DNA from: Dethiosulfovibrio faecalis
GTDB lineage: Bacteria > Synergistota > Synergistia > Synergistales > Dethiosulfovibrionaceae
DNA length: 64,000 nt
NCBI RefSeq assembly: GCF_021568795.1
Contig: NZ_JAKGUE010000001.1
Location: 62,001-126,000 of the forward strand
Reading direction: 5' to 3'
Below the pieces are notes generated by a model. The model saw only the letters and a program-made list of their open reading frames with translations. It was not told the origin of the DNA and searched no databases. Of the stretch, positions 21,856 through 36,425 are shown piece by piece. The number at the start of each line of letters is the position of its first letter. Positions within the stretch are counted from its first letter, which is position 1. A program made the position numbers and the translations under genes.

Positions 21856-22347
21856 ATGGTAGATCCAATAGAAAATCAAGTGATACGATTGCTCGAAGCA
21901 GCGGAAGATCTATATCACCGTCTTGTGTTGATAGTTGGAAAAAGTGGTTCCGGTAAAACTTCCGTTGTTCAAAATTTGGCAAAACTGTATGATGTCGAGC
22001 CTATCAATATCAATCTGTGCCTATCGAAGGAGTTGCTTGAATTAACTAGAAAACAAAGGCAATTGAGGTTGGGCAGGATTTTAGCACAGACAGTCAACGG
22101 GAATGGGGACAAGGTTTTTCTGGACAACATTGAGATCCTTTTTGATGTTGAGCTTAAGCAGGATCCGTTGCGCTTGTTGCAGGGAATATCCCGAAATTTA
22201 ACTGTTGTGGCATCTTGGAATGGCACCTTTGAAAAAGGCAAGCTGATATATGCGGAGCCAGGTCACCGAGAATATAGAAGTTACGATTTAACAGACACTC
22301 TGGTTGTCTGCGTGAGCGGTGAGGCTACGTTAAATTTAAAAAACTAA
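21856..22347 (+). CDS. brxF: BREX-3 P-loop protein BrxF
   Basis: A 163-residue nucleotide-binding protein that opens BREX type 3 operons; its biochemical role is not well defined. The Walker A motif GKSGSGKT spans residues 28-35, and a Walker B-like VFLDNIEILFD lies near residues 87-97. The C-terminal part is beta-rich. ATG 21856 follows AGGAG. The gene is A+T-rich with lysine AAA and leucine TTG codons, unlike the flanking host genes. It is 16 bases from brxC. Confidence 0.85.
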   Translation: MVDPIENQVIRLLEAAEDLYHRLVLIVGKSGSGKTSVVQNLAKLYDVEPININLCLSKELLELTRKQRQLRLGRILAQTVNGNGDKVFLDNIEILFDVELKQDPLRLLQGISRNLTVVASWNGTFEKGKLIYAEPGHREYRSYDLTDTLVVCVSGEATLNLKN

Positions 22348-22363
22348 GTGAGGGTAGACTAAT

Positions 22364-33683: not shown

Positions 33684-35670
33684 CTGGCGAAGCACCATCC
33701 TTGAAAATTTTGTACCGAATGTCGCCAAACTGACGCTGGTATCTGATCCTGATTGCCTGCTGACCGAGGAAAAACTGGCAATGGGGCTGCGAGACCGTGG
33801 GTTTGATCTCATCGAGTTTAATGACCCCATGGAGTTCAGATATGCCTATGAGTCGAAATATCGATCCATTTGGGACCGGGGCGAATATACCGATTTGGTT
33901 GTGGTCCTTCGCTTGCAGAATGCTGAGCTGGAATCGCTGCCTTACGACCTGCTCCAGGCTGGCCGCAAACTGTCGTTCAACCTGGGTGACCTCTTCCCCA
34001 ATCTGAGCTACCCGGTCATTGAGAAACTCGACCGGGGCTTGCTGGACTTGCTTTATGAAGCCCAGCGCAAGTCGCCACCGGATCGCATGGGCGACAACAC
34101 CACCAAGGATTTTATCCTTCGACATGTATTTGGTGTGGCACCAGAACTCATATCCACAGAGGTTGAGCTTCTCCGCTTTTTGTTGCGGTTACACTACGGG
34201 AATTTGGCAATACCATCAATGCTGGCAGATAGGTTGGTTGATGTATTTGAAAGCAGTGGAAGTTTTAAAGGCTGGAGTCTGTCTCAGATCATTCCAGATG
34301 CAGAGCAGTTCTTTGTATTCATACAGGAACGCTGGCCAATATTCCTTGAAAACCTGAATCAAGCAAATCAGGTCAAAGAAGATTCTGAAGCCTACGGCTT
34401 AAAGTTCCAAGGGCCTGTGATACTTCCTTTCGACCATCAAGATATTAGGGTTTATATCGATAATTTATTTGTTGAGGGTAAACTTACACCGGTCGACTTG
34501 CCCGGCATGGATATAGCGAAAGATTCGTGGGTTTTAAGCGGTATTTCAGCAGCCCAATCAGATGGCGAGGGTCTCAGGATTTCTCGGCTGTTTGAGATTG
34601 TTGATACAGCCGACTTATCGACGGATTCGAGATACACTGACTGGATTGCGTTCTCCATGAAATGGGCGGAGCTTTCAGCGCTCATACATACGGCAAGCAA
34701 TGCCCGGTATAAGAAGCGTTATAGTGAAATAGGTCAAAAGCTGAATAGCTGCTTTGCCGATTGGCTGGAAACTCATTATGCTAGCCTTATAAACCTACCG
34801 CCCTCAACTCCAGCAATGTTGCACCACGTGCCGCGACATCTGGCCCGATCCATTGAAGATCAAAAGAATAAAAAGATAGCACTGGTGGTTATAGATGGCC
34901 TTTCGCTGGACCAGTGGATAACGGTTCGAAACATAATCCAGAAGCAAAACAGCGATCTTGTCCTGCGCGAATCAGCAACGTTCGCGTGGATACCAACGCT
35001 CACGTCTGTTTCACGACAAGCCATATTTTCAGGCAAGCCGCCGATTTATTTTCCCTCTTCCATCAACTCAACAAACAGCGAAGAGAAACTGTGGAAACAG
35101 TTTTGGCAAGGCCATGATGTTCCGAAGCTGGAGATCATTTATAAACGCAGTCTCGGAGATGGTGATGCCGAGGTCGTTATGGATAACTTAATCAATCCGG
35201 CACATACTAAGATCATTGGGCTGGTAATCGATAAAGTTGACAAGATCATGCATGGAATGCAGCTCGGAGCGGCAGGCATGCATAATCAGATAGATCAATG
35301 GTGCCGAGGTGAATACCTGACCTCTCTGCTTAATTATCTGAGTAACCATGGCTATGAAATTTGGATAACCTCAGATCATGGCAACGTAGAATCGATAGGC
35401 AAGGGACGACCAACGGAAGGTGCTATTGCGGAGAGCCGTGGAGAAAGGGTTCGTATATATCCGACACCGGAACTGCGCTCACAGGTCTCTTCTATATTTC
35501 CCTTTGCGCGAGAATGGCTTCCGTCGGGGCTGCCAGACAATTATTTCCCATTAGTTGCCTCCGGGAATGATGCATTTGTTGATGAAGGAAAGTTGATTGT
35601 CGGCCATGGAGGTGTTGCTATCGAAGAAGTTATTGTGCCTCTGATCAAAGTAGAAAGGAGGACACAATAA
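33676..35670 (+). CDS. pglZ: BREX-3 PglZ, alkaline-phosphatase-like domain protein
   Basis: The hallmark protein of BREX systems, 664 residues. The N-terminal WRSTILENFVPNVAKLTLVSDPDCLL is typical. The phosphatase-fold metal-binding positions are visible as VIDGLSLDQW near residue 405, TSDHGN near 565 and GHGGVAIEEVIVP near 642. GTG 33676 is preferred over an ATG at 33664 because GGAGGT sits 5 bases before it. The stop TAA overlaps the start of the next gene by one base. Confidence 0.88.
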   Translation: MSSWRSTILENFVPNVAKLTLVSDPDCLLTEEKLAMGLRDRGFDLIEFNDPMEFRYAYESKYRSIWDRGEYTDLVVVLRLQNAELESLPYDLLQAGRKLSFNLGDLFPNLSYPVIEKLDRGLLDLLYEAQRKSPPDRMGDNTTKDFILRHVFGVAPELISTEVELLRFLLRLHYGNLAIPSMLADRLVDVFESSGSFKGWSLSQIIPDAEQFFVFIQERWPIFLENLNQANQVKEDSEAYGLKFQGPVILPFDHQDIRVYIDNLFVEGKLTPVDLPGMDIAKDSWVLSGISAAQSDGEGLRISRLFEIVDTADLSTDSRYTDWIAFSMKWAELSALIHTASNARYKKRYSEIGQKLNSCFADWLETHYASLINLPPSTPAMLHHVPRHLARSIEDQKNKKIALVVIDGLSLDQWITVRNIIQKQNSDLVLRESATFAWIPTLTSVSRQAIFSGKPPIYFPSSINSTNSEEKLWKQFWQGHDVPKLEIIYKRSLGDGDAEVVMDNLINPAHTKIIGLVIDKVDKIMHGMQLGAAGMHNQIDQWCRGEYLTSLLNYLSNHGYEIWITSDHGNVESIGKGRPTEGAIAESRGERVRIYPTPELRSQVSSIFPFAREWLPSGLPDNYFPLVASGNDAFVDEGKLIVGHGGVAIEEVIVPLIKVERRTQ

Positions 35671-36425
35671 TGAGAAAGCGACACGACAAACTGGGCATCA
35701 AGCAGACCATTCAAAAACACTGGATGGACTATGTTGTTAAAATGATGTTGGCTGGATTCAGGGAAAAAGAAATTAGAATGGAATTAGATGAATTTTTAGC
35801 AACGCAAAAACAAAGCGGTGGTACCGGTCAGAGAGGTAAAAAAACATATGGCATGGCTATCAGTATCCTCGCATCGTGGTTTGCACCGGATAAAGATTTA
35901 ATTCCCTTTAGGGATCATGCTCTTGCACTTATTCGGAATGAGAATCCCCGAAACTGGCTTCCGTATCACTGGGCGGTTATCTCTGCGTCATATCCCTTCT
36001 GGTTTAATGTCGCAAAACAGACTGGGAGGCTTTTCAGCCTCCAAGATCAGATTACACAGGTTCAAGTTTTCTCCCGGCTCAAAGAGCAATACGGCGACAG
36101 GGAAACGGTGGCTAGAAATGCCCGGTATACAGTCCGATCTTTTGTTGCGTGGGGCGTGTTAAAGGATTCCAATGCCAAAGGCTGCTATGAACAATGCAAA
36201 CCGACGTCGGTCAGTGAACCGAACCTGACAATTCTTTTATACGAAGCCGCTCTATATGCTGATAAAGAAGGAAAAGCCGCTCTTGGATTATTGAAAAGCA
36301 ACCCGGCATTCTTCCCATTTCAATTACCCGTATTGACAGGCGACTACATCTCACAGCAGAGTAATACTATTGATGTCGTCCGCTACGGACTGGATGATGA
36401 GCTTTTGAAGCTGAAGTATTTATAA
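35670..36425 (+). CDS. brxA: BREX-3 BrxA-family protein
   Basis: A 251-residue soluble protein, last in the operon. In BREX the small BrxA-type (DUF1819) protein is a helical DNA-binding protein required for defence. Visible features are a basic N-terminus (RKRHDKLGIKQTIQKHW), helical spacing throughout, and TYRSFVAWGVL-like winged-helix spacing in the middle (YTVRSFVAWGVLKDS). Family assignment rests partly on position after pglZ. The right-hand 15-bp repeat begins 4 bases after its stop. Confidence 0.72.
   Translation: MRKRHDKLGIKQTIQKHWMDYVVKMMLAGFREKEIRMELDEFLATQKQSGGTGQRGKKTYGMAISILASWFAPDKDLIPFRDHALALIRNENPRNWLPYHWAVISASYPFWFNVAKQTGRLFSLQDQITQVQVFSRLKEQYGDRETVARNARYTVRSFVAWGVLKDSNAKGCYEQCKPTSVSEPNLTILLYEAALYADKEGKAALGLLKSNPAFFPFQLPVLTGDYISQQSNTIDVVRYGLDDELLKLKYL

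What the first reader, a model, noticed from the sequence alone, without database searches (positions are those of the whole stretch)
21856..36425. Complete BREX type 3 defence operon in a Synergistota-like chromosome
The gene order brxF-brxC-methyltransferase-(insert)-helicase-pglZ-brxA matches the established BREX type 3 layout, and every frame is intact with tight spacing. Codon use (CGC/CGT arginine, mixed leucine) and lower G+C set it apart from both flanks, which suggests horizontal transfer from another phylum.
Basis: partly seen in the sequence, partly recalled or inferred. Interest (0 to 1): 0.75.

Follow-up and report, generated by a model that had tools for sequence, protein, structure and literature searches.

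The report
BREX-3 operon with embedded Schlafen gene
This is a complete, ordinary bacterial anti-virus operon (BREX type 3) imported from outside the phylum, carrying an extra suspected suicide-RNase gene next to its DNA methylase gene; in relatives, extra defence genes turn up at two junctions beside the methylase gene and almost never at the other three.

Summary
Six intact, co-directional genes at 21856-36425 are brxF, brxC, pglXI, brxHII, pglZ and brxA; PADLOC, Pfam or NCBIfam models identify each as BREX type 3. Such Schlafens in BREX loci have been described as backup suicidal effectors (PMC12839542), and another accessory gene, BxaP, sits at the same junction elsewhere (PMC10799925). 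Import is well supported: codon use differs sharply from the flanks, a same-genus genome has an empty site, IS256-family ends bracket the block, and the PglXI tree places it beside a gammaproteobacterial sequence. So: a new member of a known kind. The more interesting result came from related loci. In 79 PglXI-anchored loci from at least 14 phyla, accessory genes fill the two junctions flanking the methyltransferase gene (43/63 and 38/47) and almost never the other three (0/44, 3/41, 0/48). Nearly identical operons carry different cargo, and divergent tracts run into the neighbouring core genes, which fits cassette exchange by homologous recombination. I did not find this two-slot rule in the papers I could read. 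Defence and methylation are untested.

The parts
21484..21670 (+). Remnant of an IS256-family element (two end modules, no transposase), ending in AAAGATATTGTACGTTAT; left border of the imported block
   Evidence: Matches the two ends of full ~1.4 kb copies in sister genome G108, which encode a 410-aa transposase that I judged IS256/Mutator-like by eye, without a profile search; 18-nt repeat D10
21689..21719 (.). Perfect 14-nt inverted repeat with 3-nt spacer, 136 nt upstream of brxF; possible operator
   Evidence: I8; only one copy in the own genome and one in G108, none in five other genomes of the genus; no comparable palindrome (arm of 11 nt or more) upstream of brxF in 44 other loci. Function inferred
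21856..22347 (+). brxF, P-loop protein of BREX type 3
   Evidence: NCBIfam NF033453 190.3 bits (cut-off 50), PADLOC BrxF 8e-55; Walker A GKSGSGKT
22364..26104 (+). brxC/pglY, ATPase
   Evidence: PADLOC BrxC 2109.8 bits, Pfam DUF6079 1922 bits; Walker A GNYGTGKS and LLVVDE
26129..28972 (+). pglXI (BrxXI), N6-adenine methyltransferase with nested recognition domain
   Evidence: PADLOC PglXI 1512.6 bits; FCGTG at 165, DPPF at 527, CPEC 289 / CPHC 316 between them
28972..30780 (+). Embedded Schlafen (AlbA_2) - HATPase_c_4 - winged-helix protein, proposed backup effector
   Evidence: Pfam SLFN_AlbA_2 59.9 bits (cut-off 25.3), HATPase_c_4 40.2 (26), Fic-like_C 32.7 (27); best fold match 3lmm DIP2311, E 5.7e-23
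30442..30540 (+). Three 33-nt in-frame direct repeats in the linker before the winged-helix domain of the Schlafen gene
   Evidence: D2
30801..33683 (+). brxHII (PADLOC label BrxHI|BrxHII), Swi2/Snf2 helicase
   Evidence: PADLOC 1336.4 bits; GLGKT, DESH and QRIGRVDR motifs
33658..35670 (+). pglZ, alkaline-phosphatase-superfamily effector
   Evidence: NCBIfam BREX_PglZ_3 872.8 bits (cut-off 250); Pfam PglZ 127 bits
35670..36425 (+). brxA, DNA-binding protein
   Evidence: PADLOC BrxA 303.7 bits
36426..36443 (+). Truncated end of the same IS256-family element (17/18 identical to 21653-21670); right border. A fuller inverted copy follows in G108 and is deleted here

Best explanation
A complete BREX type 3 operon, imported as an IS-bracketed block before G000 and its sister species G108 split, with a Schlafen gene embedded at the pglXI/brxHII junction. 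Shown by sequence: the seven genes, their families, the import, and exchange of cargo between relatives. Inferred from the families: PglXI marks host DNA by adenine methylation at a non-palindromic site; BrxF, BrxC, BrxHII and BrxA sense unmarked invading DNA; PglZ acts as the primary effector; the Schlafen protein is a second-line effector that cuts RNA, probably tRNA, when the first layer fails. The two junctions beside pglXI behave as cargo slots where accessory defence genes are exchanged by homologous recombination in the flanking core genes.
For: All six core proteins match BREX models and keep their motifs. The Schlafen domains pass Pfam cut-offs and the predicted model (pLDDT 82) best matches DIP2311, which has the same domain order. 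G108 carries a 94-98% identical operon at the same site, with a second Schlafen gene at brxC/pglXI and its pglXI/brxHII copy broken by an IS. Around that G108 slot, identity falls to 91-95% in the last ~250 nt of brxC and to 82-95% in the first ~450 nt of pglXI, against 97-100% further off. G110 is an empty site. Slot survey: 81 of 110 junctions beside pglXI filled, 3 of 133 others (Fisher p = 2e-35); one locus per 70% PglXI cluster: 32 of 46 against 1 of 57. Literature: PMC12839542, PMC10799925.
Against: No activity of any component was measured. The Schlafen acidic-site mapping is incomplete: E14 and K21 are invariant among relatives, but at a position that is D or E in most relatives the window protein has K52, with D53 next to it. 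The predicted model has pTM only 0.59. No sigma-70-type promoter was found upstream. One sister genome has lost the slot-B Schlafen reading frame, so it is not always needed.
Confidence: 0.78

Rival explanations
1. The embedded protein is a transcriptional regulator of the operon: its AlbA_2 domain binds nucleic acid, HATPase_c_4 binds ligand, and the winged helix binds the perfect palindrome upstream of brxF.
For: The winged-helix region matches MarR-like folds; an isolated perfect palindrome lies 136 nt before brxF and is conserved in G108; many AlbA_2 proteins are annotated as regulators (own knowledge).
Against: Other BREX-3 loci with Schlafens lack such a palindrome (1 of 45 loci), so it does not track the gene. 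G108 has the palindrome though its slot-B Schlafen is broken. Other genes in the same slots are OLD-like ATPases, nucleases and SIR2 proteins, an effector pattern rather than a regulator one.
Confidence: 0.18
2. The Schlafen gene is an unrelated passenger carried by chance, with no functional link to BREX.
For: Cargo differs even between nearly identical operons, and the gene is IS-broken in G108.
Against: 150 of 156 cargo ORFs in filled slots beside pglXI are co-directional with the operon and mostly start within a few nt of the core stop codon. Schlafens recur in BREX-3 loci of many phyla. PMC12839542 reports at least 1017 taxa.
Confidence: 0.2
3. The two-slot pattern reflects only that pglZ, brxA, brxHII and brxF-brxC are translationally coupled by overlap, so insertions elsewhere are lethal to the operon; nothing attracts cargo to pglXI.
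For: Empty outer junctions mostly overlap by 4-23 nt.
Against: Empty slot-B junctions also often overlap or abut (-43 to 18 nt with one 257), yet 38 of 47 are filled; brxF/brxC gaps reach 61-148 nt and are never filled.
Confidence: 0.4

Closest known systems
BREX type 3 (brxF-brxC-pglXI-brxHII-pglZ-brxA)
   Same: Same six genes, order, models and motifs
   Different: One extra gene at the pglXI/brxHII junction
Schlafen RNase - minimal histidine kinase - wHTH backup effectors in BREX loci (PMC12839542)
   Same: Same domain order, embedded within a BREX operon
   Different: Lies between pglXI and brxHII; in the survey Schlafens are commoner between brxC and pglXI (21 of 63 against 3 of 47, BLAST-detected)
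BxaP in type 3 BREX of Akkermansia (PMC10799925)
   Same: Accessory defence gene at exactly the same junction
   Different: Unrelated protein family; BxaP was shown to protect without BREX
BREX type 3 of sister species G108 (L037)
   Same: Same site, 94-98% identical core (92% for BrxA)
   Different: Second Schlafen at brxC/pglXI; slot-B Schlafen broken by a DDE_Tnp_1 IS

Membership tests
BREX type 3 | Six core genes brxF, brxC, pglXI, brxHII, pglZ, brxA in this order and direction | tested here: met
BREX type 3 | BrxF and type 3 PglZ above curated model cut-offs | tested here: met
   NF033453 190.3 vs 50; NF033449 872.8 vs 250
BREX type 3 | BrxC of the type 3 kind | tested here: met
   PADLOC PDLC02482 2109.8 bits, full length; Pfam DUF6079 1922 bits. 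The general NCBIfam BrxC model gives only 45.9 (cut-off 400)
BREX type 3 | Methyltransferase with recognition domain nested in the core and a four-cysteine motif | tested here: met
   FCGTG 165 and DPPF 527 about 360 residues apart, CPEC 289 and CPHC 316 between; criterion from PMC12839542
BREX type 3 | Site-specific adenine methylation and exclusion of unmodified phage | not testable with these tools
   Needs long-read methylation data and infection assays
Schlafen backup effector of BREX | SLFN/AlbA_2 + HATPase_c_4 + winged helix, embedded in the core operon | tested here: met
   start overlaps the pglXI stop
Schlafen backup effector of BREX | Acidic active site for RNA cleavage | tested here: inconclusive
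   E14 and K21 invariant, E19 present; a third position is K52 with D53 beside it; alignment to animal Schlafens weak
Schlafen backup effector of BREX | RNase activity and abortive infection | not testable with these tools
   No assay available

The most novel reading that the evidence does not exclude
BREX type 3 operons have two dedicated cargo slots, one on each side of the methyltransferase gene, into which diverse second-line defence genes are exchanged by homologous recombination within conserved brxC, pglXI and brxHII sequence, sometimes together with the 5' part of the methyltransferase, so that effector and possibly target specificity can change together.
Probability: 0.5. Interest if true: 0.55.

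Novelty: new member of a known kind. Interest (0 to 1): 0.4.

Why it matters
On its own this is one more BREX-3 locus with a backup effector. The slot rule, if it holds in a larger sample, gives a simple way to find new defence genes: read whatever lies between brxC and pglXI or between pglXI and brxHII. It would also make testable whether effectors in these slots guard BREX against phage inhibitors, since near-identical operons with swapped cargo exist in nature.

Tried and rejected
Misannotated DISARM: the helicase also hits DrmD models, but far below BrxH (349 bits with cut-off 610, against 1336). Viral origin: only 6 of 2.9 million viral contigs encode a PglXI relative, best 45-54% identical for the convincing ones, so no phage carrier is indicated. 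The palindrome upstream of brxF as a general BREX-3 operator: not found in other loci. Sigma-70 promoter and intrinsic terminator scans upstream found nothing. The 18-nt flanking repeats were first taken as an integrase att pair or target duplication; full copies in G108 show they are IS ends. Mapping Schlafen catalytic residues onto animal Schlafens was too weak to use.

Full report
Observation. Seven co-directional open frames fill 21856-36425. Six match BREX type 3 models: BrxF, BrxC, PglXI, BrxHII, PglZ and BrxA. Key motifs are intact: Walker A in BrxF and BrxC, FCGTG and DPPF with two CxxC pairs between them in PglXI, GLGKT/DESH/QRIGRVDR in the helicase, and DG/DHG/HGG in PglZ. PMC12839542 calls BrxF an inactive STAND NTPase; here, and in 34 of 45 BrxF sequences from related loci, a Walker A pattern is present.

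The insert. It has Schlafen AlbA_2, HATPase_c_4 and Fic-like winged-helix domains, all above Pfam cut-offs. The AlphaFold2 model (pLDDT 81.9, pTM 0.59) best matches DIP2311 (3lmm), a protein with the same layout. PMC12839542 describes exactly this type of protein linked to BREX loci in at least 1017 taxa and proposes tRNA cleavage and abortive infection. PMC10799925 reports another accessory gene, BxaP, between PglXI and BrxHII in type 3 BREX. The insert is therefore a known kind of addition.

Import. Codon use and G+C differ from both flanks. Among genomes of the same genus, G108 holds the operon at the same site; G110 has the same left and right flanks with 541 nt of ordinary sequence instead. 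In G108 the block is bracketed by ends of a multicopy ~1.4 kb IS element; in the window the left remnant is 21484-21670 and the right end is trimmed to 18 nt by a deletion that also removed most of a neighbouring gene. The element's 410-aa transposase was judged IS256/Mutator-like by eye only. In the PglXI tree (85 rows, quick method, SH-aLRT only) the window and G108 group with a gammaproteobacterial MAG (99) and then with Chlorobiota and one other Synergistota sequence (100); the Synergistota rows need at least 5 changes. Repeated inter-phylum transfer is likely; the immediate donor is unknown. In the phylum, 19 of 188 genomes have a PglZ match, a few of them weak.

Cargo slots. 79 loci were fetched with PglXI as anchor and annotated by BLAST. 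Counting a junction as filled when the gap exceeds 300 nt: brxF/brxC 0 of 44, brxC/pglXI 43 of 63, pglXI/brxHII 38 of 47, brxHII/pglZ 3 of 41, pglZ/brxA 0 of 48. In the two filled slots 150 of 156 ORFs of 85 aa or more run with the operon. With one locus per 70% PglXI cluster the pattern persists: 16/25 and 16/21 against 0/15, 1/18 and 0/24. The Synergistota loci, collected with PglZ as anchor instead, agree: the only filled outer junction is a SIR2 gene in G029. Of 60 slot-A proteins scanned, 18 have a Schlafen domain and 5 a YhcG nuclease domain. Slot B is rich in OLD-like ATPases (21 of 95 proteins) and DUF3696 proteins, some with an RNA ligase. Caveats: the sample is the best 80 of at least 582 confirmed matches to a PglXI query, cargo ORFs were called mechanically, and an insert in an outer junction could be lost off the end of a 10 kb flank.

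How cargo changes. Between the window and G108, brxC and brxHII are 97-100% identical, but identity drops to 91-95% at the brxC 3' end and 82-95% over the first ~450 nt of pglXI, exactly around the slot where G108 has an extra Schlafen. Another divergent tract (84-93%, with one 97% bin) covers pglZ from about 34600 to the end of brxA. Lysobacter (L088) and Desulfobulbus (L094) share brxC at 93%, pglXI at 98.9% and brxHII at 94.6%, yet have unrelated genes in both slots. L088 and a Verrucomicrobial locus (L083) share brxC up to its stop (93%) and everything from mid-pglXI onward (88%), but differ in slot A and are only 75% identical in the 5' part of pglXI. This fits replacement by homologous recombination in the flanking core genes, at times taking the 5' part of pglXI along. 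It is an inference from few pairs; several are metagenome bins.

Verdict. Identity as BREX type 3 is near certain; import from outside the phylum is well supported; the Schlafen as a second-line RNase effector is the best reading, untested. The operon is a new member of a known kind. The slot rule is the part worth following; I found no statement of it in the papers held, which do not include most subscription journals or preprints.

Noticed in passing
window 18564-20235: An IS3-family element (rve and HTH_Tnp_1 frames on the - strand) splits a Synerg-CTERM surface-protein gene (17377-18563 and 20236-21059) that is continuous in G108 and G110.
   Followed up: partly
window 17659-18513: Three 285-nt tandem repeats (96% and 68% identical) in the same surface-protein gene; the self-matches suggest more copies in G108 and G110.
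   Followed up: partly
window 36449-36500: Only the 3' end remains of a small gene (HicB-like by eye) that is intact in G108 and G110; removed by the deletion at the right border of the BREX block.
   Followed up: no
window 21264-21443: A short frame for a small membrane-like protein of about 58 residues, just left of the IS remnant; present in G108, absent from G110.
   Followed up: no
L049 (genome G175) 716-15184: A BREX-3 locus whose middle, from the brxC C-terminal half to the pglZ N-terminal half, is replaced by a type I restriction system with SIR2-HerA and a Fic/RhuM gene.
   Followed up: partly
L050 (genome G016) 2413-9171: pglZ, again only from about residue 387, and brxA follow an AAA_5 gene and a DUF2357/PDDEXK_7 gene plus a transposase fragment instead of the BREX core.
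   Followed up: no
L037 (genome G108) 6439-9556: The slot-B Schlafen gene is broken by a DDE_Tnp_1/DUF772 insertion sequence, while a second, intact, distantly related Schlafen sits in slot A.
   Followed up: yes
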